From contig JAWXAX010000072.1 of NCBI GenBank assembly GCA_034439735.1, positions 1 to 34,003 of the forward strand: a DNA stretch of 34,003 nt, written 5' to 3'. The position numbers and the translations under genes are program-made. Each line of letters begins with the position of its first letter. The first letter of the stretch is position 1. The notes under the pieces were generated by a model that made no database searches, had not been told where the DNA came from, and was given only the letters and a program-made list of their open reading frames with translations. Below, piece after piece: positions 13,407-33,963 of this stretch. Source of the DNA: Rhodothermales bacterium (GTDB lineage Bacteria; Bacteroidota; Rhodothermia; Rhodothermales; JAHQVL01).

Positions 13407-13619
13407 ACGGGATATCGTGTAGCGTCTAGGTGCAGGATCGAACGCATACGTTCGATCTAAAACCCTTTTGCGGCAGGTTCAGGGGGAATGTACGCATCAT
13501 CCGCGGCATTGTTTACAAACAGGCGCGGGCATATCTCATCTTTCGCTCATGCTCCGCTCATGTTGCGGGCCGATTCCAGGGCGATTTTGGGCCATCCGTT
13601 CATCGAACTGTGCCCGGCC

Positions 13620-16600
13620 ATGAAAACTGTCGTCTGTCTGCTGCTTGTTGTGCTTACCGCGGCGCCATTGCGCGCCCAACAGAGCCTGATCTTTAACCAG
13701 TACATCACCCAGCCGGATGTATGGCGGCCGGCCGCGCCTTCCGAGCCCGGCGTTGACGCAAAAGGGGATCTGACCCTTTCGGTCCCCGTGATGACGGTCC
13801 CGGGTCGAGGCGGGTTGGATTACACGATCCAGTTCACCTATCGGTCGGGCATCCGCGTAGGGCAACGGGCTGGCTGGATTGGCCTTGGCTGGGAGTTTGA
13901 TCCTGGCTCCATCACCCGAGAACCGATGGCGCTGGTGGATGTCGGCGGCTCGGTGCATGGAACCGACTGGGCGACAGGCGCCGCGCCCGTGTGGCAGCCG
14001 GATGCCTACTTCGTGACGACGCCTGCAGGCTCATCCATGATGACGCGCTTCGTCGCCGGCGCCACGCCCCCGCGGACGGATACAGACGGGTTCTACCTGA
14101 ACGAATGGCGCCCCTGGAAGGTGGACTTTACCACGGCGAACCCTGTCACCGTCGTCGACGCCGCCGGCGGCGGGACCACCACCTCGGTCGTCTACAATGG
14201 CGCGGCCACCCCGAAGCCGGACTATACCGCCTTCACGATCACGGCCGATGACGGCTCCCGGTACATCTTCGCGCACCCGACCCTCTCTACCTTTCGGGCA
14301 TTTGCCAGCAATCTGACGGAGCAGGACGATCTGCAGGTCGAGTACTTCGTGAGCACCTGGCGCCTGCGGGCAATCCTGGGGCCCGATTACCTCGGGCCCG
14401 ATATCCCCGTCGGCGTCGAAGCCGGCAGTTGGATCCGGTTTGACTACACCGCGCCCACGACGATCGTCGACATGAATGGCGTAGAAGCCCCCACACGCCA
14501 GCAGGTGGCTTATCTGAGCGCAATCGTCACACCCACGCATCAGGCGTCGTTTTCGACCTCGCCGCGCTTCAACGAGGACTTCGCGTTGTACGAGGAGGGG
14601 CATTTCCAGGAGTTGAACACCATCACCCTGGCGGCCCGGTCGGCGCCGACGACGATCATCCAGAAAGTCGAACCGATCACCTCCAAGCTCCATCAGAGCC
14701 CGGAGGAAAAGAGGCTTTCGCTGGATGGAATCAAAATCTATGGCAAGTCGAGCGATGCCTCGATGCCGGCATATGCGTTCACCTACTGGGGATCATGCCA
14801 TACCACAATCACTGGCGACCATGATGACTGGTTCGGCTTCTGCCACCAGGATACGTCCGACGTCTTCAACACCGGCTCCAATAACGCCGGACGCGCATGG
14901 AGCCTCAAGCGGATCACGTATCCAACGGGTGGCTATGATGAATTCGACTACGAAGACGATGCCATCCTCAGTACCGAAACGGCGCCGTTCTGGCAATATG
15001 ACCTTGAAAATGGCGCCACGACGACGGCACTCACCTTCAGCGTCACGACCGAACAAACGCGCCAGGGAGGAGCGCGGGTGCTGTCGTACAAACGAGGTGA
15101 TGGCCTCGGGAGCGAGTGGACCGCCACGTACAGCTACGGCGCGGGCCGGCTGAGCGGTATCCCGAGCGGTTGGTGGAAGACCTGGTACACGACCTTCCGG
15201 GCATTCCTGGGGAGCGAACGCGGGCAGGCCGCCGTGTTTTACGACTACGTTCGTCGTACCGATCCGGATGGCGGCGCGGTCCAAACCCATCATGTTACCA
15301 GTGGGAATCACGCCGCCAGCGCCCTCAAGCTCCAGACGTTTCTGTACCTGAAGCTCGATTATGGCAACGCTAATTTTTTATATCACGACTTCACGCTGGT
15401 CCAGGGAAACCAACACTGGAACTGGGGGCTCCCGTTCGAGACGCGCTACTTCAACAATGGCGGCACAAACCCTGTCCGAAAAACGACCCGCACCTACGAC
15501 TTCACGAGCTACAAGCTCGCCAGTGCGTTCACCTCCGGCGCCAACGAGGCGAAAATCGTCTGGGCATACGCCGACAAAGTGAGCAGCGAGACCGATACCG
15601 ACTATGGTCAGAGCGCCAGCCCCTCGACGTTTATCACCCGAACCACTACGTACGAGCACGATTCCGCCGCCGGCACGGGTACGGGCTACGTGACGTCCAC
15701 CGAGGAGACGCTCAACAGCACCGCCACGCCGGCCCGGCGGACTGAGTACACCTATACCTATCAGCAGTACACGGATCTCAACACGCGCAACATCCTTCAC
15801 CCTGCGGTTCAGACACTCGTCGGTGAAAAAACGAGCGCCACCTCTACCACCTGGCATGCCTCACAGGTGACTCGTTGGGGCAGTTTCTCCGTGACCGGGG
15901 GTACACTCTGGAAGCCCAAATACACCGTCGCCTGGAATGGCGCGGCATCGGCGACCAAGCCCACCTACAGCAACTGGTCGATAGATACCATACCCGCCGG
16001 CTGGCAGAAAAAGGACGAGACCACCGCCTATAACGAACACGGTCTCCCTACTTCCACCAAGGACCCGCGCGGGAAGGTGATCACCCTGACGTACTTCACC
16101 GGCACAACAGGCACAAGCGTCATCCCCCCGGGGCTGCTCAAGACGGTAGCCAGAAGCGGGCTGTCAGTCGAGTTCGGTTACGACGCATCGTTCGGCCTGA
16201 TTACCACCGTGAAAGATGAAAATGAGCACACACGCACCTACGAGTACGACAATTTCGGCCGGCTCCAGGGGGTCAAGGACCGGATGAGTCCGTCGAATAC
16301 GGTTACTACCTTTACGTACACGACGACCACGGCGCCATTCCAGGTGCTCACCAAACAGTTCCACGCCGGTGGGCTCGCCTATGAAACGCTGTCGTTCTAC
16401 GACGGTCTCGGCCGGCCGCTACAATCGCAAACGAAGGACGGTAGCGTGTACATCGTCGGGCATACCGAGTATCTGCCAGGCACCTCGTCCGCCGGTGCAA
16501 AGGTCCGCCAGTGGAAGCCGTACAGCCACGCGACGGCCGGCGCCTATCATGCGGGCTTCGCCGCCACGGCTCGCACGCAGTACGGGAGCGGCACCAATCC

Positions 16601-19364
16601 ATACGTCGAGACGCAGTATCGCCGCGATGGCCTGGCAAGGGTGAGTCACATTACACCGGAGAACGATGGCGTTACCGCGCCCAATGTCGTCACTTCCTAC
16701 AACGTGGGCGCACTCGACGGTGGCTCGTCTTCCAACTACAGCTTTCAGGAAATAACCGACGAAGTTGGCCACATTACACGCACGTACACCGACACCTTCG
16801 GCCGCACCAAACAATCCGTGGCCGGCTACAACACGGCCGACAAAGCCGTCACGACCTTTACGTACAATGTGCTCGGCCTCCCGACGCAGATTGTCGATCC
16901 GCGCGGCCTCGTCACGACGAATACCTACAACGTCCAGGGCCAACTCACCCAGCGCATTTCGCCCGACGCAGGCACGGTGAAGTTCGAGTACGATGCCGCC
17001 GGCAACATCCGCTTTAGTCAAGATGCCGTCCAGACCGCGGGAAGTGACGTGCTGTACACGAAATACGATGACCTGGGCCGGCCAACGATCACCGGGCTCC
17101 ATACCAACATCGGCTTCGCGACGTTGGCTGGGACGACGGACTATAGCTGGGAGACGTCGACTACAGGCTATTTCTTGTTCGTCAATCACTATGGCGATGC
17201 CGCCAATGGCTATGCAGGCACCGCCGCGAAGCCGGGAACAAGCACCTTCCCGTGGTCGCTATTTTCCACACAGATCAATGCGGTGCCCGCGGTTCTTAAC
17301 GGCAAAGCACATCGCACAGCCGTTGCCTTTAAAAGCAACGGGCGGTGGCAGATCGAGCTGGCCAGCTTCGATAATGAGGAGCGCGCGGCCTGGAAGCGGG
17401 TCTATACGGAAGCCGCTGCCGGCGGCATTGCGAACGCGCTGAATACGACATTTACTTACGCATTTAACTGGCAGGATCAGCCGACCAGTATCCAATCGAC
17501 CGTCGGCAGCCTGAACTGGTACCAGTGGTACGACTACAACGAGCGAGGCACGGAAGCCAGGAGCTCGGCCTCGACGACTTCCATTAAACCCGCACTGGCC
17601 GATGTACAGCTTCTCTATAATCCGGCCGGCGCCGTCAGAACGGTGCAACTGGCGGAATATGGGACCAATTCCTACCGCGATTCAAAGGCGTATACCTACA
17701 ACCTGCGGGGCTGGGTAACGGGTATCGATCTGGACGCGGAAAGTACCCCTTTTGCGGCTACGTATGAGTACGCCGGCGACGGAAACGTCACCACCGCCAT
17801 CGTAAACCAGGGCGCCGCGGCGATCGACAAGCGCTACCGGTACGTCTTCACCTACGATGCGCTCAACCGGATGAAGACGGCGGATTATTCCTACGCCGTC
17901 TGGAACAACACCGGGCAAGTTGGCCCCCAACCGTTTGCTGTGGGTGGGTGGGACTGGTACTTCTCCACGCGGTACGACGTGTCGGGTGTCACGTACGACA
18001 AAAGTGGCAACCTGACCGCCCTGACCCGCAATCGGGAGACCGGTAGCGCGATCGACCAGCTCACCTATGCCTACACCCCCGGCACAAACAGGCTGGCCTC
18101 TGTCACGGATGCGCTGACCACTGCCGAATCCTGGGATGCCGAGACGGGGAGTTTTTCCTACGACGCCAGTGGCAACATGAAGACGGCCCCGGCGCCCTAT
18201 GGCATCACCGCCACCGTGTACGATGAACGTAATCTGCCCATTTCCATCACCGCGGGCACAACGACTACCTATCGGTATAGCGCCGACGGCCAGCGCTTCG
18301 CGAAGAAAGTTGGAAGTGCGGCGGGAGAGCATTACGTTTTGGATGGGAGCCAGGTTATTGGCGTGTTCTCTGACACAGGGGCCCTCAAGCATTGGAATAT
18401 TATCTCGGGCGGGTCGGTCTGGGGTCGTTATGATGGCGCCGCCCGATTCTACTACCACAAGGACGCCCTGGGCTCTACGCGGCTCGTGATGAACGGGGCC
18501 GGCACAACGGTCGAGTGGCGGGACTATTACCCCTTTGGCCTCACGATGCCCGGGCGGAGTTATCTGTCGGGGGCGGTCGCAAAAGAAGGCTTTACCGGTA
18601 AGGAACGGGACGCCGAGACGGGGCTGGACTACTTCGGCGCGCGGTATTACATGCCGGCGCTGGGGCGGTGGGGAAGTATGGATCTGCTGGCGCTGGATCC
18701 TGCCCAGGTCGACAAGTCGCCTTATGCCTACAGCTGGAACAATCCGGCCACGCTGACTGATCCGGATGGGCGGTGCCCAAAGTGCCTCAAGACGGCCTAC
18801 AACGTCGTCAAGCGAGCCTATAAAGCCGCTGAAAATGCCGGCGACATGAGTCAGCTTTTTAAGCTGGATACCTGGAAAAAGGCCGGCGTGGATGAGGTTG
18901 TGGATTTCGTTGACAACGTGAGCACGCTTGCGGATGGTCAGGCGACTGTCGACGACGCGACCGCTGTAGTAGATCTGGTGACCGGACTTGGGGATGAGGC
19001 GAAGGCGGTTGGGAAAGCTGTCGGAGCGATTGAGGAGGCGGGAGATATTGCAGGTGCAGCCCGGAAGACAGATTTTGTGGTTACGGAGACGGGTACGGCG
19101 ATTCCTGTTCCCGACGGTGCTGTTGGCCCTTCGACTCCTCCCTCGGGAGGTAAAGGAATGGTTTACTCAGGAGGCTCGGGCGGCAAGGGAATGCATGCTT
19201 CGGCCTCCGACGTATTTATCATGGATCCCATAACGGGCGGTCCATTTCCACAGGGACGCCGTGTATACTATATGAATGATCGCAATCAAAAAATAAATCG
19301 AGCAACTGGGCAAACCGTCGGGAAGAAAGATCCAGAGGCGCATATATATATTGAGGAAGACTGA
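13620..19364 (+). CDS. Secreted RHS/YD-repeat protein with variable C-terminal toxin-like tip
   Basis: ATG 13620 is chosen because it opens a perfect signal peptide (MKTVVCLLLVVLTAAPLRAQ). Upstream in-frame starts to 13488 would bury it. The product is 1914 residues. An N-terminal SpvB/RHS-like region (DVWRPAAPSEPGVDAKGDL, then LDYTIQFTYRSG) is followed by many YD repeats such as HTRTYEYDNFGRLQG and KFEYDAAGNIRF. The RHS-associated core lies at about residues 1610-1718, with YYHKDALGSTRLV, YYPFGLTMPGRSY, FTGKERDAETGLDYFGARYY and the terminal DPDGR. RHS shells of this kind encapsulate a C-terminal effector. The tip (about residues 1719-1914) has an alanine-rich helical part, then DFVVTETGTAIPVPDGAVGP and a final 50-residue segment with IMDPITGG, RRVYYMN and DPEAHIYIEED. 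I cannot name the toxin activity. The last 110 bases are clearly AT-richer. The immunity gene overlaps the stop codon. Confidence 0.92.
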   Translation: MKTVVCLLLVVLTAAPLRAQQSLIFNQYITQPDVWRPAAPSEPGVDAKGDLTLSVPVMTVPGRGGLDYTIQFTYRSGIRVGQRAGWIGLGWEFDPGSITREPMALVDVGGSVHGTDWATGAAPVWQPDAYFVTTPAGSSMMTRFVAGATPPRTDTDGFYLNEWRPWKVDFTTANPVTVVDAAGGGTTTSVVYNGAATPKPDYTAFTITADDGSRYIFAHPTLSTFRAFASNLTEQDDLQVEYFVSTWRLRAILGPDYLGPDIPVGVEAGSWIRFDYTAPTTIVDMNGVEAPTRQQVAYLSAIVTPTHQASFSTSPRFNEDFALYEEGHFQELNTITLAARSAPTTIIQKVEPITSKLHQSPEEKRLSLDGIKIYGKSSDASMPAYAFTYWGSCHTTITGDHDDWFGFCHQDTSDVFNTGSNNAGRAWSLKRITYPTGGYDEFDYEDDAILSTETAPFWQYDLENGATTTALTFSVTTEQTRQGGARVLSYKRGDGLGSEWTATYSYGAGRLSGIPSGWWKTWYTTFRAFLGSERGQAAVFYDYVRRTDPDGGAVQTHHVTSGNHAASALKLQTFLYLKLDYGNANFLYHDFTLVQGNQHWNWGLPFETRYFNNGGTNPVRKTTRTYDFTSYKLASAFTSGANEAKIVWAYADKVSSETDTDYGQSASPSTFITRTTTYEHDSAAGTGTGYVTSTEETLNSTATPARRTEYTYTYQQYTDLNTRNILHPAVQTLVGEKTSATSTTWHASQVTRWGSFSVTGGTLWKPKYTVAWNGAASATKPTYSNWSIDTIPAGWQKKDETTAYNEHGLPTSTKDPRGKVITLTYFTGTTGTSVIPPGLLKTVARSGLSVEFGYDASFGLITTVKDENEHTRTYEYDNFGRLQGVKDRMSPSNTVTTFTYTTTTAPFQVLTKQFHAGGLAYETLSFYDGLGRPLQSQTKDGSVYIVGHTEYLPGTSSAGAKVRQWKPYSHATAGAYHAGFAATARTQYGSGTNPYVETQYRRDGLARVSHITPENDGVTAPNVVTSYNVGALDGGSSSNYSFQEITDEVGHITRTYTDTFGRTKQSVAGYNTADKAVTTFTYNVLGLPTQIVDPRGLVTTNTYNVQGQLTQRISPDAGTVKFEYDAAGNIRFSQDAVQTAGSDVLYTKYDDLGRPTITGLHTNIGFATLAGTTDYSWETSTTGYFLFVNHYGDAANGYAGTAAKPGTSTFPWSLFSTQINAVPAVLNGKAHRTAVAFKSNGRWQIELASFDNEERAAWKRVYTEAAAGGIANALNTTFTYAFNWQDQPTSIQSTVGSLNWYQWYDYNERGTEARSSASTTSIKPALADVQLLYNPAGAVRTVQLAEYGTNSYRDSKAYTYNLRGWVTGIDLDAESTPFAATYEYAGDGNVTTAIVNQGAAAIDKRYRYVFTYDALNRMKTADYSYAVWNNTGQVGPQPFAVGGWDWYFSTRYDVSGVTYDKSGNLTALTRNRETGSAIDQLTYAYTPGTNRLASVTDALTTAESWDAETGSFSYDASGNMKTAPAPYGITATVYDERNLPISITAGTTTTYRYSADGQRFAKKVGSAAGEHYVLDGSQVIGVFSDTGALKHWNIISGGSVWGRYDGAARFYYHKDALGSTRLVMNGAGTTVEWRDYYPFGLTMPGRSYLSGAVAKEGFTGKERDAETGLDYFGARYYMPALGRWGSMDLLALDPAQVDKSPYAYSWNNPATLTDPDGRCPKCLKTAYNVVKRAYKAAENAGDMSQLFKLDTWKKAGVDEVVDFVDNVSTLADGQATVDDATAVVDLVTGLGDEAKAVGKAVGAIEEAGDIAGAARKTDFVVTETGTAIPVPDGAVGPSTPPSGGKGMVYSGGSGGKGMHASASDVFIMDPITGGPFPQGRRVYYMNDRNQKINRATGQTVGKKDPEAHIYIEED

Positions 19365-19723
19365 TGATCAAATCGGAAGCCCTGAAATCGTTCGCAGCCA
19401 GGTTAAAGCTTCTCGAAGGGGAAGAGCTCTGTGCGATCACGTTTATTCGTGATTATGTACAGTTTACTCTTGGTGAGAACATACTGAATACATACACGTG
19501 GCCGATTCTAGATGAGGGAGGTATCTTGTATCACGAGGACACTCTCGGATATAGAGATCGTTTGTGTGGACAAATCGGAAACAAGGTATCTGAAGTGTCC
19601 TATGAAGAGCCTGTGGCCATGATCGACTTTGGAGAATTGTGTTTGCGGGTGATTCTGGACGGTGATGATTGCTATGAAACCGCAAGCCTTCGCGATTCCG
19701 GGGGTGAATATAGTGCCGTTTAG
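19364..19723 (+). CDS. Probable immunity protein for the RHS tip
   Basis: The 119-residue acidic cytoplasmic protein starts at ATG 19364, sharing its first base with the RHS stop (TGATG), so it is translationally coupled. There is no signal peptide or membrane helix. The sequence (KLLEGEELCAITFIRDYVQFTLGENILNTYTWP, then VAMIDFGELCLRVILDGDDCYETA) suggests a small alpha/beta fold. I do not recognise the family. The immunity role is inferred from its position directly behind a variable RHS tip, its small size, its net acidity and the AT-rich composition shared with the tip. Confidence 0.7.
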   Translation: MIKSEALKSFAARLKLLEGEELCAITFIRDYVQFTLGENILNTYTWPILDEGGILYHEDTLGYRDRLCGQIGNKVSEVSYEEPVAMIDFGELCLRVILDGDDCYETASLRDSGGEYSAV

Positions 19724-19928
19724 TCGGGCATTGGATACGAAAAATCTTCACTCCTTTAGTATTGGTTATTTGTAGATAATATTCAAGGATAATGGAGTGC
19801 CAGGCAGTAAGATTTTCCCCCTATGCGGCTCGAATGATACCAGTGTAAAGATGATTTGATGTAGCACCTGCAAGCACAAAGTATACGGTGAAATAGAACA
19901 CCATGATTGCCAATAAAAGGTGATTCAC
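19724..19928. other. AT-rich spacer between the two small genes
   Basis: The 205 bases are much AT-richer than the rest of the window and carry no open frame of note. AAAGGTGA at 19916-19923 is a Shine-Dalgarno for the ATG at 19929. I see no convincing promoter or terminator. It may be remnant cassette DNA from earlier tip/immunity exchanges. Confidence 0.4.
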
Positions 19929-20144
19929 ATGAGTGACAAATTCGAATTCCACTGGGGAGATACTGTGCGCGTTCGACTCGCTCCCGAAGAATCCTGCAAA
20001 ACCGAACAGCTGGCCTCAATTTGTGGTATCAGGGAGGACGGTGGTCTGATCATGTATCTTGTAGAATTCTCTGATGGATCGACCTTTGAATTGCCGGAAG
20101 AAAGGCTCATGAAGTTCGATGAAAACTCCTTAAAAAACTGTTGA
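19929..20144 (+). CDS. Small acidic protein, possible second (orphan) immunity gene
   Basis: The 71-residue product (MSDKFEFHWGDTVRVRLAP, then GIREDGGLIMYLVEFSDGSTFELPEERLM) starts at ATG 19929, five bases after AAAGGTGA; an in-frame GTG at 19920 lies inside that SD and is rejected. The pattern of a short beta barrel with W-G-D-T-V-R-V at the front and S-x-x-x-F-E-L-P-E-x-x-L at the end recalls small immunity proteins of the Imm31 type; this is from memory and not verified. The final residues and the TGA stop lie inside the left terminal repeat of the adjacent element, so the original 3' end may have been replaced. Confidence 0.55.
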   Translation: MSDKFEFHWGDTVRVRLAPEESCKTEQLASICGIREDGGLIMYLVEFSDGSTFELPEERLMKFDENSLKNC

Positions 20145-20279
20145 GATTTGCGTATTGCATAAGGAGCAAGTCATCCCCGCGCAGGCGGGGACCCAGGAAA
20201 ATGCCTGTCTGATGGCTGGATCCCCGCCTGCGCGGGGATGACAATGCATTGGGCTGTGGAAATCCCAACAGTTTCTAAA
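20130..20279. mobile_element. MITE-like palindromic element with terminal inverted repeats (copy 2, complete)
   Basis: The ends 20133-20151 and 20258-20276 are inverted repeats matching at 16 of 19 positions (right end read in reverse: AGAAACTGTTGGGATTTCC). Weaker matching extends to 20130 and 20279. Inside is a perfect 21-base inverted repeat (20171-20191 with 20221-20241) around the core ACCCAGGAAAATGCCTGTC. The inner palindrome resembles the widespread CCCCGC-type REP/dRS3-like repeats of other bacteria. The element has no coding capacity. It overlaps the 3' end of the preceding small gene. Confidence 0.7.
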
Positions 20280-26428: not shown

Positions 26429-28861
26429 ATGCTCAAAAGCTACCTCACCATCGCCCTGCGTAACCTACGCCGGCATAAAAGCTACGCGTTTATCAATATC
26501 TTCGGTCTCGCGGTCGGGCTGGCGGCGTGTTGCCTGATCTTGCTGTACGTCCGCGACGAGTTGCTATTCGAATCGATGCACAAGCGGGCGGACCGGATCT
26601 ACCGCGTGCATCTGGAAGGCGCCCTCGCCGGCCAGACCTTTAACTCGGCCACCACGTCGGCCCCGATGGCAGCGGCGTTGCGACAGGACTACCCGGAGGT
26701 CGAGTCCGCCGCCAGGATCTGGGGCACAGGGCGTGTCCTGCTGCGTAGCGGTGACCGCTCGTTTTACGAGGAGGACTTTTTCTGGGCGGATTCGACGGTT
26801 TTTGAGGTCTTTTCTTTTCACTTCTTGCAGGGGAATGCCCGTACTGCCCTCAACCGACCCGATGGTTTAGTCATCACTGAATCTACCGCACGTCGCTATT
26901 TCGGTGAGGCGGATCCCTTGGGAAAGACGCTGACGCTGGACAACCAGCTCGACCTCACGGTGACGGGGGTGATTTCGGATATGCCGGACAACACCCACTT
27001 CCAGTTCGACATGCTGGGCGCGCTCCTCAGCCAGGACCGCAGCCGAAGCCCGGAGTGGATCGGCAATTCGTTTTATACCTACGTGCTCCTGCGAGAAGGG
27101 CATGCCGGCGACGTGTTGGAGGCCAAATTCCCGGATCTGGTGCGCACCTACGCCGGCCCGCAGCTTCAACAGGCGACCGGGCAGAGTTACGAGGCACTCC
27201 TCACTTCGGGCGTCCGCTACGGCTTTTATCTCATGCCCCTGCGCGACATCCACCTGCACTCGAAGGCCGAAAACGACTTCGCGGTCAACGGCGATATCCA
27301 GTACGTGTATATCCTGCTCGCGGTGGCCGTTTTTATCGTGCTCATCGCCTGCATCAACTTCATGAACCTTTCGACGGCTCGATCGGCGAATCGGGCCCGG
27401 GAGGTGGGGCTGCGTAAGGTGTTGGGGTCGGATCGCCGGCGCCTGGTGCAGCAGTTTCTTGGCGAGTCGGTCCTGATGGCGATCGTGGCCATGGTGATCG
27501 CCCTCGCCCTCATGGTGGCGTTGTTGCCGGTAATGAATACGCTGTCCGGGAAGTCGCTCTCGCTCGACCTCTTCCGCGATCCCGCGATCGCGCTCGGGTT
27601 GCTGGGTGTCGCCCTCACGGCCGGATTGCTGGCCGGGCTTTATCCCGCCGTCGTGCTTTCGTCGTTTCGCCCGATAGAAATCCTGAAGGGCCAGTTCACC
27701 ACCGGCGCACGTGGACTGTGGATGCGACGTGTGCTGGTGGTCACCCAGTTCGCAATTTCGATGATGTTGCTGGTGGGCACCGGCGTGATGTACAACCAGT
27801 TGCGGTTCATGCAAGAGCGCGACCTCGGGTTTCGCGGGGCGCAGGCGGTGGTGCTTCCCATCGAAACCGAGGCTATGCGCCGGCACTACCCGGCGTTGAG
27901 TGATGCGTTGCAGGCCCATCCAGGCGTGGAACACGTCGCCGCGGGCAATGGAGTCCCTGGACGGTTTATGAACGACACCGTGTTTCGTCCGGAGGGCGGG
28001 ACCAACGAGGACCTTAAAAACCTGAAGGTAGCCTCGATCAGCGACACGTACATCGAGACCCTCGGGCTGGAGATGGCCGCCGGCAGGCCTTTTTCGAGCG
28101 ACGTGACGTCGGACTCCACCCAGGCGTTTCTGCTCAACGAAACCGGGGCCCGGTTATTCGGGTGGTCGCCCGAGGAGGCCGTCGGCAAGAAGGTGGCCTG
28201 GGTATCCCGAAACGACGATGGGACGGATGAGATGCGGACGGTCGTAGGCGTCGTGCGCGACTTTCACCTGGAGTCGATGCAGCTGGAAATCAAAGGGATG
28301 ATCTTTTATCCCGGACCGCAGGCGTTCACGAATGTCGTCGTGCGCGTCCGCCCGGGGGACATGCCGGCGACCCTCGCGTTCCTGGAATCGACCTGGACGA
28401 CGTACGAGCCGGGGTTTCCTTTTCGCTATTTCTTTCTCGACGAAGACTTCGGCCGGCTCTTCGAGCGCGAGCGCCGGCTGGGCCAGATGTTCACCGGCTT
28501 CACCGCGCTGGCCATCCTGATCGCCTGCCTCGGATTATTCGGACTCGCGTCGTTCATCACCCAGCAGCGCACCAAGGAGATCGGCGTGCGCAAGGTGCTC
28601 GGGGCGAGCGTACCGGTCATCCTCCTGATGTTGTCGAGGGAGTTCACGCGGATGGTCCTCTGGGCGTGTGTCCTCGCGTTCCCGGTCGCCTGGTTTGTGA
28701 TGGATCGCTGGATGGACGGGTTCGCCTACCGCACCGAACTCGGCTGGGGCGTGTTCGCCCTGGCCGGCCTCGCCACCCTGCTCATTGCCTGGCTTACGGT
28801 GGGGTATCAATCCATCAAAGCCGCCCTCGCCGACCCGGTGAAAAGCCTCCGCTACGAATGA
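26429..28861 (+). CDS. ABC transporter permease 1 (MacB/FtsX type, two FtsX domains)
   Basis: The 810-residue inner-membrane protein has the duplicated FtsX layout. The first helix (INIFGLAVGLAACCLILLYV, about 22-43) is followed by a MacB-like periplasmic domain (about 45-280). Three helices follow, the first in YILLAVAVFIVLIACINFMNLSTARSANRAREVGLRK form. A second first-type helix (VLVVTQFAISMMLLVGTGV) starts the second half, which has its own periplasmic domain and three final helices. The cytoplasmic motif TKEIGVRKVLGAS and the end ALADPVKSLRYE are typical. MacB-like permeases of this kind do not form a channel across the membrane but drive periplasmic substrates through an adaptor and outer-membrane channel. 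It starts 62 bases after the ATPase gene. Substrate is unknown. Confidence 0.94.
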   Translation: MLKSYLTIALRNLRRHKSYAFINIFGLAVGLAACCLILLYVRDELLFESMHKRADRIYRVHLEGALAGQTFNSATTSAPMAAALRQDYPEVESAARIWGTGRVLLRSGDRSFYEEDFFWADSTVFEVFSFHFLQGNARTALNRPDGLVITESTARRYFGEADPLGKTLTLDNQLDLTVTGVISDMPDNTHFQFDMLGALLSQDRSRSPEWIGNSFYTYVLLREGHAGDVLEAKFPDLVRTYAGPQLQQATGQSYEALLTSGVRYGFYLMPLRDIHLHSKAENDFAVNGDIQYVYILLAVAVFIVLIACINFMNLSTARSANRAREVGLRKVLGSDRRRLVQQFLGESVLMAIVAMVIALALMVALLPVMNTLSGKSLSLDLFRDPAIALGLLGVALTAGLLAGLYPAVVLSSFRPIEILKGQFTTGARGLWMRRVLVVTQFAISMMLLVGTGVMYNQLRFMQERDLGFRGAQAVVLPIETEAMRRHYPALSDALQAHPGVEHVAAGNGVPGRFMNDTVFRPEGGTNEDLKNLKVASISDTYIETLGLEMAAGRPFSSDVTSDSTQAFLLNETGARLFGWSPEEAVGKKVAWVSRNDDGTDEMRTVVGVVRDFHLESMQLEIKGMIFYPGPQAFTNVVVRVRPGDMPATLAFLESTWTTYEPGFPFRYFFLDEDFGRLFERERRLGQMFTGFTALAILIACLGLFGLASFITQQRTKEIGVRKVLGASVPVILLMLSREFTRMVLWACVLAFPVAWFVMDRWMDGFAYRTELGWGVFALAGLATLLIAWLTVGYQSIKAALADPVKSLRYE

Positions 28862-28869
28862 CCCAAACA

Positions 28870-28897
28870 CCGTAAAGACGCCATACATGGCGTCTCC
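28870..28897. repeat. Single GACGCC/GGCGTC hairpin between permeases 1 and 2
   Basis: AGACGCCA and TGGCGTCT (28876-28895) pair over eight bases around a four-base loop (TACA). With its flanks (CCGTAAAG before, CC after) the 28-base block matches the start of the array at 31313-31340 with one difference in the loop. There is no U tract behind it, so full termination is unlikely. Confidence 0.75.
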
Positions 28898-28933
28898 TCA
28901 CAGCCGACCGTGCGCTCCTAAGACAGCACCGCC

Positions 28934-31306
28934 ATGCTCAAAAACTACCTCAAGATCGCCCTCCGCACCATGCGGCAGCAGAAGCTCTACAGCGGACTCA
29001 ACATCCTGGGTCTGGCGCTCGGCATCGGCTGTTTCCTGCTGATCGCCTCGTTTATTCGATACGAGCTGAGTTACGACCGCTTCCACCCGGGTGCGGACCG
29101 GGTCTTCCGCATCGTCGAACGGCAACCGAACAATGTGTTCATGGGCAGCGATATGTTCGCCGTCACGCCGGCTCCGCTCGCCCGCACCCTCGAGGCCGAC
29201 TTTCCCCAGGTGGCACACGCCACCGCCCTCTCCTCGATCAGTGTGCTGATCGGCATCGGGGACGCGCACTTCTTTGAGCAGGGCATCTGGGCGGATTCGA
29301 GTTTCTTCGATGTCATGCCGTTCCCGCTTGAGCGGGGCGATGTTTCCACGGTGCTCCGCTCTCCAGATGGCATGGCCATTTCGGCGACCCTCGCGAAGCG
29401 GATGTTCGGAGAGGCAGACCCCATCGGGCAGGTCGTCGAGGTGCAATATTGGGCCGGCACGTTGCCGCTCCGGGTCGACGCCGTCGTGGCCGACGTACCG
29501 GACAACGCCCACTTTACGTTCGATTTTATCCTCCCCATCATGGCCAACTCGGATTATGCGAGCAGCCTGGCTTACTGGACGAACAACTCGTGGTATACCT
29601 ACTTCCGGGTGCGCGAAGGCGCCGATCAGGACGCGCTGCAGGCCACCATGCCCGACTTTGTGTTGCGGCACGTGGGCGCGGAAGAGGCCGGCAATTACGA
29701 GTACATCGTCGAGCCGATGACCGATATCCACCTGCATTCCGATGTCAACTTCGACCTCGGGGCCCCCGGCGACATCCGCTACGTGTACCTCTTCGGAGCG
29801 ATCGGTATCGTGATTCTGCTGCTGGCCGGCATCAACTACATGAATCTGGCCATCGCGCGGTCGATCAAACGGGCCAAGGAAGTCGGGTTGCGCCAGTCGA
29901 TCGGAGCCCATCGCACACAAATCATCGTCCAATTCATCAGCGAATCGGTGTTGATGGCGTTTTTCGCGCTCGGCCTGGGCGTCTTGCTGGCCTGGTTCAG
30001 CACGCCGGTCTTCGCCACGCTCATCGACCGTCCTGTCATGCTGGCCTGGGAGGAGCCATTGCTCTACCCGCTACTCGCGATCCTCGTCCTGGCAGTTGGT
30101 CTACTCTCCGGCAGTTATCCCGCGCTCTACATGTCCCGGTTGCGGCCTATCCAATCGCTCAAGGGTGTGCTTGCCGGAGGGACGGATCGCTCTGTGGTGC
30201 AACGTGGGCTGATCATTTTCCAGTACACGGCATCCATCGTATTGATCGCCGGCAGCCTCATCATCTATCGCCAGCTCGATTACATCCAGCAAAAGGCGCT
30301 CGGGTATACCCGCGAACACATCGTCACCGTCCCGATTCGTGATTCGGCCTTGCGACAGGAAGCCGATGTGTTGGAGGCTGCCTTCGGTCGTCATCCGGAT
30401 GTGGTCGGGGTGACCGCCGTCAGTTCGTTGCCGACGAACATCGGCTCGTCCAACGGGGTGAGCTCCTGGGAAGGGCGTGAAGGGGATCGAACCCTGTCGG
30501 TCTACCAGGCGAATGTCGGGTACGACTTCTTTGAGGTATTCGACATCCCTATCGTCGCCGGCCGGCCGTTTACGCCGGAATTTACATCCGACTCGCTCGA
30601 AGCCGTCATCCTGAACGAGACGGCCGTCGCGGCGCTGGGATGGACGCCGGATACGGCTGTCGGGAAACGGTTCATGGAAACTGGGCACGTGGTAGGGGTG
30701 ATGAAAGACTTCCACCTCCACTCGCTCCATCTCCCGATCGCGCCGATGATGGTTCGGATGAGTGGCAACTGGTACAATCACCTGGCCATCCGCATCTCTG
30801 GAAATAACATACCGGCCAGCCTCGCCTTTATTACCGAGACGATGGATGGCTTCACGGATTACCCGGTCGAATACGCGTTCCTCGACGAGGTTTTCGACGA
30901 CCTCTATACATCCGAACGCCGGCTCGGCCAGGCCTTCGGCTATTTCACCTTTCTGGCGCTGCTGATCGCCTCGCTGGGACTCTTTGGCCTCGCGGCGTAC
31001 GCCTCCGAGCGGCGGTCCAAGGAGATCGGGATCCGCAAAGTCCTCGGCGCCTCGGTGGCGGACCTCGTGGCGCTTCTTTCTCGGGAGTTCCTGGTGCTGG
31101 TCATCGCCGCCCTGGTGATCGCCATTCCCGTGGCCTACTTCGGCGTCCGTCGCTGGCTGGATGGCTTTGCGTATCGGGTGGATCTGGGGGCGGATGTGTT
31201 CCTCATCGCCGGCGCGCTGGCGGTGGTCGTCGCCCTGGTGGCCGTCGCCTACCAGGCCCTCCGCGCCGCCCTCGCCGACCCCGTCCGCAGCCTCCGCTAC
31301 GAATAA
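28934..31306 (+). CDS. ABC transporter permease 2 (MacB/FtsX type)
   Basis: This 790-residue paralogue of its neighbours starts MLKNYLKIALRTMRQQK and ends ALADPVRSLRYE. It shows the same duplicated layout: first helix ILGLALGIGCFLLIASFI, a MacB-like periplasmic domain, the middle helix block with GINYMNLAIARSIKRAKEVGLRQSIGA, a second half starting LIIFQYTASIVLIAGSLII, and the final block with SKEIGIRKVLGASVADLVALLSREF. The periplasmic domains differ strongly from permeases 1 and 3, while membrane and cytoplasmic motifs are conserved. This suggests different substrates or heteromeric pairing; that is inference. It shares the single upstream ATPase gene. Confidence 0.94.
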   Translation: MLKNYLKIALRTMRQQKLYSGLNILGLALGIGCFLLIASFIRYELSYDRFHPGADRVFRIVERQPNNVFMGSDMFAVTPAPLARTLEADFPQVAHATALSSISVLIGIGDAHFFEQGIWADSSFFDVMPFPLERGDVSTVLRSPDGMAISATLAKRMFGEADPIGQVVEVQYWAGTLPLRVDAVVADVPDNAHFTFDFILPIMANSDYASSLAYWTNNSWYTYFRVREGADQDALQATMPDFVLRHVGAEEAGNYEYIVEPMTDIHLHSDVNFDLGAPGDIRYVYLFGAIGIVILLLAGINYMNLAIARSIKRAKEVGLRQSIGAHRTQIIVQFISESVLMAFFALGLGVLLAWFSTPVFATLIDRPVMLAWEEPLLYPLLAILVLAVGLLSGSYPALYMSRLRPIQSLKGVLAGGTDRSVVQRGLIIFQYTASIVLIAGSLIIYRQLDYIQQKALGYTREHIVTVPIRDSALRQEADVLEAAFGRHPDVVGVTAVSSLPTNIGSSNGVSSWEGREGDRTLSVYQANVGYDFFEVFDIPIVAGRPFTPEFTSDSLEAVILNETAVAALGWTPDTAVGKRFMETGHVVGVMKDFHLHSLHLPIAPMMVRMSGNWYNHLAIRISGNNIPASLAFITETMDGFTDYPVEYAFLDEVFDDLYTSERRLGQAFGYFTFLALLIASLGLFGLAAYASERRSKEIGIRKVLGASVADLVALLSREFLVLVIAALVIAIPVAYFGVRRWLDGFAYRVDLGADVFLIAGALAVVVALVAVAYQALRAALADPVRSLRYE

Positions 31307-31536
31307 CCCGAGCCGTAAAGACGCCATACCTGGCGTCTCCCCGCCATACCTGGCGTCTCCCCGCCATACCTGGCGTCTCCCCGCCATACCTGTCGTCTGG
31401 CCATACCTGGCGTCTGGCCATACCTGGCGTCTGGCCATACCTGGCGTCTGGCCATACCTGGCGTCGGGCCATACCTGGCGTCGGGCCATACCTGGCGTCG
31501 GGCCATACCTGGCGTCTCTATACCCGTCTCCCCCAT
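31307..31536. repeat. Tandem hairpin array between permeases 2 and 3
   Basis: Within 31321-31517 are eleven head-to-tail units: four of 20 bases (type CCGCCATACCTGGCGTCTCC; unit 4 has TGTCG and ends TGG) and then seven of 17 bases (GGCCATACCTGGCGTCT or ...CG). The 20-base type can fold as CGCCA-TACC-TGGCG and the 17-base type as GCCA-TACC-TGGC. The first unit with its flank (31313-31340) is almost identical to the single hairpin at 28870-28897. The last 19 bases before the ATG of permease 3 are not part of the array. No gene is supported here. Confidence 0.9.
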
Positions 31537-33963
31537 ATGCTAAAAAACTACCTCACCCTCGCCCTACGCACCCTCTGGCGCGACAAAGGCTACGCCGGCA
31601 TCAATATCGTCGGCCTCAGCGTCGGGATCGCCTGCAGCGTCCTGATCTTCCTCTTCGTCCGCTCCGAATGGAGCTACGACCGCTTCCACACCCACGCCGA
31701 CCGCCTCCATCGCGCCTGGGTCCGCGAGGCCTACGACGGGGGGCAGACGTACTTCAACAGCGTCACCCCGCTCCCCCTCGGACCAACGCTGGCAGCCACC
31801 TACCCGGAGGTGGAGGCGTTCACCCGCGTGGTCGCCTTCGAAAACCTGGTGCAGTACGAGGACGACCGCTTCATGGAATCGATCCGACTCGTAGATCGGC
31901 ACTTTTTCGACCTGTTTGATTTCGAAGGGATCGCCGGCGATCCCCGCACGGCGCTTTCCGGGCAAAACGGGGCGGTGCTCACGGAGGACGCCGCCAGTCG
32001 GATCTTCGGTACGCCTGAGGTGATCGGGAATACGGTCTCTATCCGCGTCGGCGACGAGGCCTTCGAGGCGTTTGTGGTCCAGGCCGTCGTGGCGAATCCG
32101 CCGGCTACCAGCAGCATCCAGTTTGATGTCTTGCTGCCCTTCGAAGTCGGCGACGGCCGAATCTGGCCGCCTCGTGCGCATCAGGCCTGGTTTAACGTCG
32201 TACCCGAAACGTACATCCTCCTGCGCCCCGGGGTCGACGCCGCGTCCCTCGAAGCCAAATTTCCGGCCATGATCGCCTCGGCGCTCGGCGACCAGGTGTC
32301 CCCGGGCCAGTATACCATCGGTCTTCAGTCGATGACGGATATCCATCTCAATCCCGCGATCCCACAGGGCATCGCTCTCGTCAGCGATCCGGGGTATTCG
32401 TATCTCCTCGCGGCCATTGCATCCTTGATCCTGGTGATCGCCTGCATCAACTTCACCATCCTGGCCATCGGACGATCGGCCGGCCGGGCGACGGAGGTGG
32501 GGATTCGCAAGGCCGTAGGAGCCAGCCGGCCCCAACTCATGCGGCAGTTCTGGGGCGAGACGCTGGTGCTCACGGCCCTTACGTTGATCGGCGGGTTCGG
32601 ACTTGCGTCCCTTGCCCTACCCCTGTTCAACGAACTCGCCGGCCAGCAATTGACGTTGACGCTTGACGGCACGATTGTGATGGCGGCGCTGGCCCTCTTC
32701 CTGGGTGTCGGTTTGCTGTCAGGGGCGTATCCGGCCTTTGTTATGTCCGACTATCGGCCCATTCAGGTGCTGAAGGGAGCCGTCATCGCCGGCCGGCGCG
32801 GCAGTTGGTTGCGAAGGAGCCTTATCGCCGTCCAGTTTGTGGTCTCAATTGCCCTGATCGCCGGCACGCTGGTCATCCGGTCCCAACTGGACTACATTCG
32901 AAACCGCGACCTCGGTTTCGAGCGGGAGCAGGTGGTGATCGTGGACACCGGCGTGTCACCCGAGCAGGGCCTGCCGATCGTGGAACGGTTGCGGAACGAA
33001 CTCGCCGGCGATCCAGGAGTCGCCGCGGTCGGTAGCGCGCGGTTCGTGATGGGCGGCGGCTCGTGGCTCCGCGCTGGCTACCGGGCCAACGACGGCTCGT
33101 TTCGGGAGTTTAACCTCAACGTGGTCGACCCGGCCTATGTCGAAGCGATGGGGATGGAGATGGTCGCCGGCCGCAATTTCTCGGATGAAATCCCGTCCGA
33201 TCACCAACAGGGGATCATTGTGAACGAGGCCTTCGTGGCCGCCTACGGGTGGACGGACCCGCTGAATGCCCAACTCTCCGGGGATTTCGGGCCGCATCGA
33301 ATCGTGGGCGTCGTGCGGGATTTTAACTACGCCTCGCTCCACACGGAAGTGATGCCGCTGGCTCTCGTCCAGGACCCCACCGCGATACTTCAGGGAGTGT
33401 CCGATCAGAACGCCGGCCAGTCGGACTCCCCAAAACTCGCCATCCGCCTCCGTGCGGGGGAAGTTCGCGACGCCATCGGCCGGCTCGAAGCGGCATGGAA
33501 AGCCGTGGCGCCCGAGCAGGAGTTCGCCTATACGTTTCTGGATCAGGCGCTCGAGAGCCAGTACCGGCAGGAGCAGGAACTGGGCCGGATGGTCGGCATG
33601 GCGTCAGGCCTGGCCGTATTTATCGCCTGCCTCGGTCTGTTCGGACTCGCCACGCTCACCGTGGCGAGGCGGACTAAGGAGATCGGAATCCGCAAAGTGC
33701 TCGGCGCCTCGTCGCCGCACCTCGTGATGCTCATCGCCAGCGAGTTCGTTATCCTGATCGGGTTTGCGTTCCTGATCGCCACGCCGGCGGCCTGGGTAGC
33801 CATGCAGCGCTGGTTGGATGGATTTGCGTACCGGATCGATCTGTCGCTCGCCCTGTTCGTCGGCGCGGGCGTGCTGGTTCTGCTGGTCGCCCTCGCCACC
33901 GTAAGCCTTCAGGCCATCCGCGCCGCGCTGGCGGACCCGGTGGATAGTTTGCGATATGAATGA
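31537..33963 (+). CDS. ABC transporter permease 3 (MacB/FtsX type)
   Basis: The 808-residue product starts MLKNYLTLALRTLWRDK and ends ALADPVDSLRYE. It repeats the duplicated FtsX architecture: helix NIVGLSVGIACSVLIFLFV, a MacB-like periplasmic domain, the middle helices with LVIACINFTILAIGRSAGRATEVGIRKAVGAS, a second half from SLIAVQFVVSIALIAGTLVI, and a C-terminal block with TKEIGIRKVLGASSPHLVMLIASEF. It is complete in the window. Its upstream gap of 230 bases, filled by a hairpin array, is three times that of permease 2, so its expression relative to the upstream genes may be lowered or uncoupled. Confidence 0.94.
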   Translation: MLKNYLTLALRTLWRDKGYAGINIVGLSVGIACSVLIFLFVRSEWSYDRFHTHADRLHRAWVREAYDGGQTYFNSVTPLPLGPTLAATYPEVEAFTRVVAFENLVQYEDDRFMESIRLVDRHFFDLFDFEGIAGDPRTALSGQNGAVLTEDAASRIFGTPEVIGNTVSIRVGDEAFEAFVVQAVVANPPATSSIQFDVLLPFEVGDGRIWPPRAHQAWFNVVPETYILLRPGVDAASLEAKFPAMIASALGDQVSPGQYTIGLQSMTDIHLNPAIPQGIALVSDPGYSYLLAAIASLILVIACINFTILAIGRSAGRATEVGIRKAVGASRPQLMRQFWGETLVLTALTLIGGFGLASLALPLFNELAGQQLTLTLDGTIVMAALALFLGVGLLSGAYPAFVMSDYRPIQVLKGAVIAGRRGSWLRRSLIAVQFVVSIALIAGTLVIRSQLDYIRNRDLGFEREQVVIVDTGVSPEQGLPIVERLRNELAGDPGVAAVGSARFVMGGGSWLRAGYRANDGSFREFNLNVVDPAYVEAMGMEMVAGRNFSDEIPSDHQQGIIVNEAFVAAYGWTDPLNAQLSGDFGPHRIVGVVRDFNYASLHTEVMPLALVQDPTAILQGVSDQNAGQSDSPKLAIRLRAGEVRDAIGRLEAAWKAVAPEQEFAYTFLDQALESQYRQEQELGRMVGMASGLAVFIACLGLFGLATLTVARRTKEIGIRKVLGASSPHLVMLIASEFVILIGFAFLIATPAAWVAMQRWLDGFAYRIDLSLALFVGAGVLVLLVALATVSLQAIRAALADPVDSLRYE

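What the first reader, a model, noticed from the sequence alone, without database searches (positions are those of the whole stretch)
18774..20144. RHS tip and immunity cassette with a sharp composition change
The conserved RHS core ends at DPDGR (about 18770). From about 19255, in the last part of the tip, the sequence becomes AT-rich, and this continues through the overlapping immunity gene, the spacer and the second small gene. This is the pattern expected for tip-plus-immunity exchange by recombination. The toxin tip (DFVVTETGTAIPVP..., IMDP, YYMN, DPEAHIYIE) is one I cannot assign to a named activity.
Basis: partly seen in the sequence, partly recalled or inferred. Interest (0 to 1): 0.6.

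Follow-up and report, generated by a model that had tools for sequence, protein, structure and literature searches.

The report
Swappable toxin tip with immunity gene
The end of this large surface protein is a swappable bacterial toxin cap followed by the gene that probably neutralises it; the pair belongs to a real family found in at least five bacterial phyla that the Pfam and NCBIfam databases do not model, but the kind of system is well known.

Summary
The RHS core ends at DPDGR (about 18773). The toxin domain proper is the last 97 residues (19071-19361), followed by an immunity gene (19364-19723, 1-base overlap) and a small ORF. Total GC drops at about 19255, but GC3 changes at 18813 (18801-19014), just after the core; Gly/Pro-rich codons in the first half of the tip mask the earlier change.

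A motif scan of 84,980 genomes found 19 further tips of the same family, all at C-termini. A tblastn search added three Leptospira plasmid tips. All seven non-actinobacterial tips are followed by a gene of the window's immunity family (window gene held out: E 6.5e-17). Actinobacterial tips carry a different immunity gene. Related RHS shells carry unrelated tips. So this is a laterally exchanged toxin-immunity cassette.

The tip matches no Pfam or NCBIfam model and no solved structure. The immunity model resembles PIM7, partner of the DNase toxin PT7. A 15-residue motif resembles colicin E3. A nuclease activity is my best inference, untested. The window's tip lacks an Arg present in the other 15 tips of a broad alignment and sits on a long branch, so it may be weakened. 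New member of a known kind.

The parts
13488..18773 (+). RHS shell (RHS/YD repeats, DUF6443, RHS-associated core ending at DPDGR); true start probably ATG 13620, which opens a signal-peptide-like stretch
   Evidence: core model 63.7 bits; start from inspection of the sequence
18774..19070 (+). Variable pre-toxin linker; GC3 falls from 0.75 to 0.61 here
   Evidence: changepoint 18813 (18801-19014)
19071..19361 (+). Toxin tip domain (97 aa; FVVTxxGxAIPVP...GGSGG...IMDP...YMN...TG...DPxAH)
   Evidence: Alignment with 19 motif-found tips and four others found without the motif; AF2 model pLDDT 81.8, mostly beta
19364..19723 (+). Cognate immunity gene (119 aa), start overlaps toxin stop by one base (TGATG)
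   Evidence: Same family directly behind the tip in seven other loci; held-out profile E 6.5e-17
19724..19928 (.). AT-rich spacer (39.5% GC), no recognisable remnant of tip or immunity gene
19929..20144 (+). Small gene (71 aa) with ribosome-binding site; possible leftover immunity gene
   Evidence: AAAGGTGA upstream; only weak hit to DUF7141, E 7.8e-4, below cut-off; no relative found
20160..20275 (.). Dispersed palindromic repeat that marks the 3' end of the AT-rich block
   Evidence: 85 matches in the own genome, counting both strands of the palindrome; DNA fold z -8.1

Best explanation
This is a polymorphic RHS toxin whose 3' end is a laterally acquired toxin-immunity cassette. Shown by comparison: the 97-residue tip (19071-19361) belongs to a family found in at least five phyla, and the 119-residue product of 19364-19723 belongs to the family that accompanies the tip outside Actinomycetota. 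Inferred: the shell is exported through the Sec pathway, the tip is released near DPDGR and enters neighbouring cells, and it acts there as a small beta-rich nuclease, more likely on RNA without a metal (conserved Tyr, Gln, His and usually Arg) than on DNA. The immunity protein binds and blocks it in the producer. The cassette came in by recombination near the end of the RHS core (18801-19014). The 71-aa gene behind it may be a leftover immunity gene. The window's own copy may be weakened, since it lacks the usual Arg.
For: Nineteen genome loci with the tip motif, all at the C-terminal end of open frames; Leptospira tips found without the motif score 59-67 bits against the profile. Immunity family directly behind the tip in L055, L062, L066, L067 and three Leptospira plasmids; held-out E 6.5e-17 for the window gene, 1e-32 to 1e-15 for four others, best shuffled sequence 0.4. 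GC3 changepoint at the core boundary. Nine related shells with nine other tips. Immunity model resembles PIM7, partner of the DNase toxin PT7 (TM 0.52, probability 1.00; PT7 in PMC9990079). Toxin-then-immunity order and leftover immunity genes are typical (PMC3482391).
Against: No activity is shown. The tip model has no convincing fold match. The window tip lacks the Arg that the 15 other aligned tips keep and has the longest branch, so this copy may be inactive. One of three Leptospira immunity genes is only marginally related (E 0.019). The nuclease class rests on weak analogies.
Confidence: 0.75

Rival explanations
1. The pair is a distant branch of the PT7-PIM7 system: the tip is a non-specific DNase like PT7 of Bacillus cereus, and the neighbour is a PIM7-type immunity protein.
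For: The two best PDB fold matches of the immunity model are the PIM7-complex chains 8owu_E and 8owu_D (E 0.017 and 0.019, probability 1.00, TM about 0.52; next best E 0.11). PT7 is a non-specific DNase unlike known nucleases.
Against: Neither tip profiles nor immunity profiles find PT7 or PIM7 by sequence among PDB chains, and the tip model does not match the toxin of 8owu among the 50 listed hits. Immunity folds can be shared between unrelated toxins.
Confidence: 0.2
2. The tip is a remote member of the colicin E3 group, a metal-independent RNase that cuts 16S rRNA.
For: A [DN]PxTGxxxxxxDP motif at the same distance from the C-terminus; profile comparison P 0.011, 0 of 100 column shuffles as good. 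An E3-like CdiA toxin (4ntq_A) is in the fold list, but at E 4.3.
Against: Only 15-17 residues align. The E3 residues D55, H58/H72 and E62 have no clear counterparts. PF09000 hits none of 20 tips and not this genome, though it finds a true E3-like RHS tip in the same class.
Confidence: 0.15
3. The 3' end is a decayed tip: the exchange happened, but this copy of the toxin is no longer active and the downstream genes persist as orphan immunity genes.
For: The near-invariant Arg is Phe here, and the end branch is 1.42 against a median of 0.32.
Against: The frame is intact, the other conserved residues (Pro, Gly, Met, Tyr, Gln, His) are kept, and the immunity gene is intact and coupled.
Confidence: 0.25
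4. The AT-rich stretch is not foreign: tip and immunity genes evolved in place and drifted in composition under weak codon selection.
For: Short toxin and immunity genes often have atypical composition (general knowledge).
Against: The GC3 break sits at the core boundary; of 295 other sampled genomes of the phylum only one has a tip of the family, a divergent one; related shells have other tips.
Confidence: 0.07

Closest known systems
RHS polymorphic toxin systems (Zhang et al. 2012, PMC3482391)
   Same: Large RHS shell, variable C-terminal tip after a conserved core, toxin-then-immunity gene order, leftover small genes behind.
   Different: Nothing in kind; this tip and its immunity family are not matched by the Pfam or NCBIfam models that I searched.
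PT7-PIM7 of Bacillus cereus (PDB 8owu; PT7 described in PMC9990079)
   Same: Predicted fold of the immunity protein; a polymorphic-toxin tip with its own immunity gene.
   Different: No detectable sequence similarity of either partner; the toxin fold was not matched.
Colicin E3 / cloacin rRNase domain (PF09000)
   Same: Size about 95-100 aa, beta-rich, a PxTG...DP motif close to the C-terminus.
   Different: No profile match; the E3 active-site residues are not recognisable.
Ntox30 (PF15532) and Ntox10 (PF15520)
   Same: Ntox30: all-beta, a His motif (THIP), similar range of phyla. Ntox10: its first 81 positions match the region upstream of the tip in one Leptospira protein.
   Different: No match of either model to the tip domain itself.

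Membership tests
RHS polymorphic toxin | RHS repeats and RHS-associated core | tested here: met
   PF05593 46.1 bits, TIGR03696 63.7 bits, both above cut-off
RHS polymorphic toxin | C-terminal tip that differs between related shells and recurs on other shells | tested here: met
   Nine related cores with other tips; same tip on other proteins in five phyla
RHS polymorphic toxin | Immunity gene directly downstream, conserved with the tip | tested here: met
   Seven of seven non-actinobacterial loci
RHS polymorphic toxin | Tip is toxic and the neighbour protects | not testable with these tools
   Needs expression
PT7-PIM7 | Immunity protein with the PIM7 fold | tested here: inconclusive
   Foldseek E 0.017, probability 1.00, TM 0.52, on a model with pLDDT 76.8
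PT7-PIM7 | Toxin similar to PT7 in sequence or fold | tested here: not met
   No hit with tip profiles at E up to 10 nor among the 50 listed fold hits
PT7-PIM7 | Non-specific DNase activity | not testable with these tools
   Needs an assay
Colicin E3 rRNase (PF09000) | Profile match | tested here: not met
   None of 20 tips; own genome no match, while a control RHS tip in the class scores 72 bits
Colicin E3 rRNase (PF09000) | Active-site acid and histidine pattern (D55, H58 or H72, E62) | tested here: not met
   The aligned part covers only the C-terminal motif; residues taken from PMC3482391
Ntox30 (PF15532) | Profile match to the toxin domain | tested here: not met
   No hit to 20 tips at E up to 1; own genome no match (nothing rang anywhere in that search, so it is weak by itself)
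Ntox10 (PF15520) | Profile match to the toxin domain | tested here: not met
   The model covers only residues 3-82 of the L. kirschneri protein, upstream of the tip; no hit to any tip

The most novel reading that the evidence does not exclude
The tip founds a new toxin-domain family (no curated model, no recognisable fold) that works in at least five phyla and is neutralised by two unrelated immunity families, one shaped like PIM7 and one actinobacterial; the same toxin would then have been met twice by different inhibitors.
Probability: 0.45. Interest if true: 0.5.

Novelty: new member of a known kind. Interest (0 to 1): 0.36.

Why it matters
It turns an anonymous tip into a toxin-immunity family with a defined domain boundary, a partner gene and candidate key residues, spread across Bacteroidota, Lentisphaerota, Gammaproteobacteria, Spirochaetota and Actinomycetota. 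That is enough to build a profile that would name such proteins in annotation, and two different immunity families for one toxin family make a ready test of how inhibitors evolve. The system type itself is long known.

Tried and rejected
Pfam, NCBIfam, PHROGs and PADLOC scans of the window's proteins gave nothing useful for tip or immunity. tblastn of the window tip in plasmids, a peptide-pattern scan of genomes and a single-sequence search of 296 phylum genomes found no relative; the other hits (E 0.01-1) are noise. My first motif was one base out of register, so searches are void; the corrected motif was checked on the window. Scans of viral contigs for the tip motif or the immunity family found nothing. 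Pfam 2C_adapt hits 14 tips at best E 8e-4, by a short motif as far as I know that family; not taken as homology. The two immunity families are not alignable (hhalign probability 0.4%). Fold searches of the tip gave no match below E 0.6 in PDB or viral models. Phylum searches for DUF7141 and Ntox30 rang nowhere. The paper that describes PT7 itself is not held. The tree of tips does not place the window firmly.

Full report
What is there. The + strand carries one RHS gene, 13488-19364, with RHS repeats and an RHS-associated core that ends at DPDGR near 18773. A search of the genome with the whole protein finds no second copy. The listed start is probably too early: an internal ATG at 13620 opens a signal-peptide-like stretch (position; the reading as a signal peptide is from inspection). 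The stop codon of the RHS gene overlaps the ATG of a 119-codon gene by one base (TGATG). A 205-base AT-rich spacer and a 71-codon gene follow.

Composition. The drop in GC is real: 19255-20144 is 44% GC, and the lowest-GC window of that length in the 34 kb starts at 19261. Third-position GC already falls after the core: core 0.75, linker 0.61, tip 0.44, immunity gene 0.48, last gene 0.51. The best changepoint is 18813, with 18801-19014 nearly as good, and its support is more than twice the best of 300 permutations. So the foreign-looking block begins soon after the core, as expected if the whole tip with part of the linker was exchanged.

Finding the family. The tip alone matches no model and no database sequence by ordinary search. 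I took the motif YMN-x9-TG-x6-DPxxH from the window and scanned one genome for each of 84,980 species. It gave 19 loci. In all of them the motif lies at the C-terminal end of an open frame, in RHS, HINT-containing and other proteins. In 18 of them the similarity extends upstream, well beyond what the motif asked for; L066 aligns only over the last third. This fixes the toxin domain as about 19071-19361.

Independent check. tblastn with the Pedobacter tip, not with the motif, found weak hits in Leptospira plasmids (E 0.03-0.9). In L. noguchii the hit lies 0.7 kb behind an RHS gene. The three Leptospira frames score 59-67 bits against the tip profile. A divergent tip in the window's own order (L070) was found with the profile (E 2.8e-9). 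Across 16 diverse tips the fully invariant residues are P, G, G, M, Y, Q and H. The Arg of a V-R-x-M-D motif is present in all but the window, where it is Phe.

Immunity partner. Behind the tip in Saprospiraceae (L055), Pedobacter (L062), Arenimonas (L066), Lentisphaerae (L067) and three Leptospira plasmids lies a gene of the family of 19364-19723. Each was tested against a profile built without it: window E 6.5e-17; L055, L062, L066 and L067 between 1e-32 and 1e-15; Leptospira 5e-8, 3e-7 and 0.019. In the same tests actinobacterial immunity genes gave 29 or worse and the best shuffled sequence 0.4 (E-values for 1000 sequences). Relatives without a tip beside them occur in other genomes of the phylum and on Paraburkholderia and Embleya plasmids, as expected of orphan immunity genes. 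In Actinomycetota the gene behind the tip is a different family of about 170-190 residues, not alignable with the first.

Exchange. Nine loci from relatives with RHS cores 32-55% identical near the core end carry nine different sequences after it, none like this tip by inspection. In 295 other genomes of the phylum only L070 has a tip of the family. This is the ordinary pattern of polymorphic toxins: toxin then immunity, exchanged together, with small genes left behind from earlier exchanges (PMC3482391). The 71-aa gene fits that last role, but no relative of it was found, so this is inference.

How it may work. The tip is predicted almost all beta with good confidence (pLDDT 81.8), yet no solved or viral structure resembles it convincingly. 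Three weak leads point to a nuclease. First, the immunity model (pLDDT 76.8) has as best fold matches two chains of 8owu, the PT7-PIM7 complex (E 0.017, probability 1.00, TM 0.52); their length (114-115 aa) fits PIM7 and I take them to be PIM7. PT7 is a non-specific DNase (PMC9990079). Second, the last 15-17 aligned residues resemble colicin E3 (P 0.011; 0 of 100 column shuffles as good), and an E3-like CdiA toxin appears in the fold list, at an insignificant E of 4.3. Third, most novel toxin domains of this kind are thought to be nucleases (PMC3482391). None is proof, and the tip fails the membership tests for PF09000, Ntox30 and Ntox10 and, on the toxin side, PT7. A small beta-rich nuclease blocked by a dedicated protein is my best reading: about 0.6 for a nuclease of some kind.

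Caveat on this copy. The window's tip lacks the otherwise constant Arg and has by far the longest end branch (1.42 against a median of 0.32). It may be weakened or inactive. Relatives that keep the Arg are the better first test objects.

Verdict. What is added: the domain boundary, the earlier compositional break, the family and its spread, and the conserved partner gene. The system type is known; the toxin and immunity families have no curated model in the libraries searched.

Noticed in passing
window 20160-20275 (and 1-45): A 116-base palindromic repeat just behind the AT-rich block. The own genome has 85 matches, counting both strands of the palindrome; many lie at contig ends, and this contig itself begins with one. 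As DNA it folds far better than shuffles (z -8.1); a relative occurs on Azospirillum plasmids.
   Followed up: partly
window 13488-13620: The RHS start is probably ATG 13620 (MKTVVCLLLVVLTAAPLRAQQ...), a signal-peptide-like start, and not 13488.
   Followed up: no
L078:1-2104: On a Leptospira noguchii plasmid an RHS gene is followed by another small gene and then by an unannotated frame with this tip and its immunity gene: a displaced tip cassette.
   Followed up: partly
L055:1280-1955: In a Saprospiraceae bacterium the tip frame is only 105 codons long, with its immunity gene behind it and an RHS core fragment about 550 bases further on: a cassette without its shell.
   Followed up: no
L081: An RHS protein of the same class ends in a true colicin E3-like domain (72 bits to PF09000), another tip on this kind of shell.
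   Followed up: no
L070:860-1390 and 1366-1977: A divergent relative of the tip in the same order ends differently (DPEVHH then a further 15-20 residues) and is followed by a gene that is not obviously of either immunity family.
   Followed up: no
window 26429-33963: Three successive similar ABC-transporter permease-like genes of about 800 aa each; identified by inspection only.
   Followed up: no
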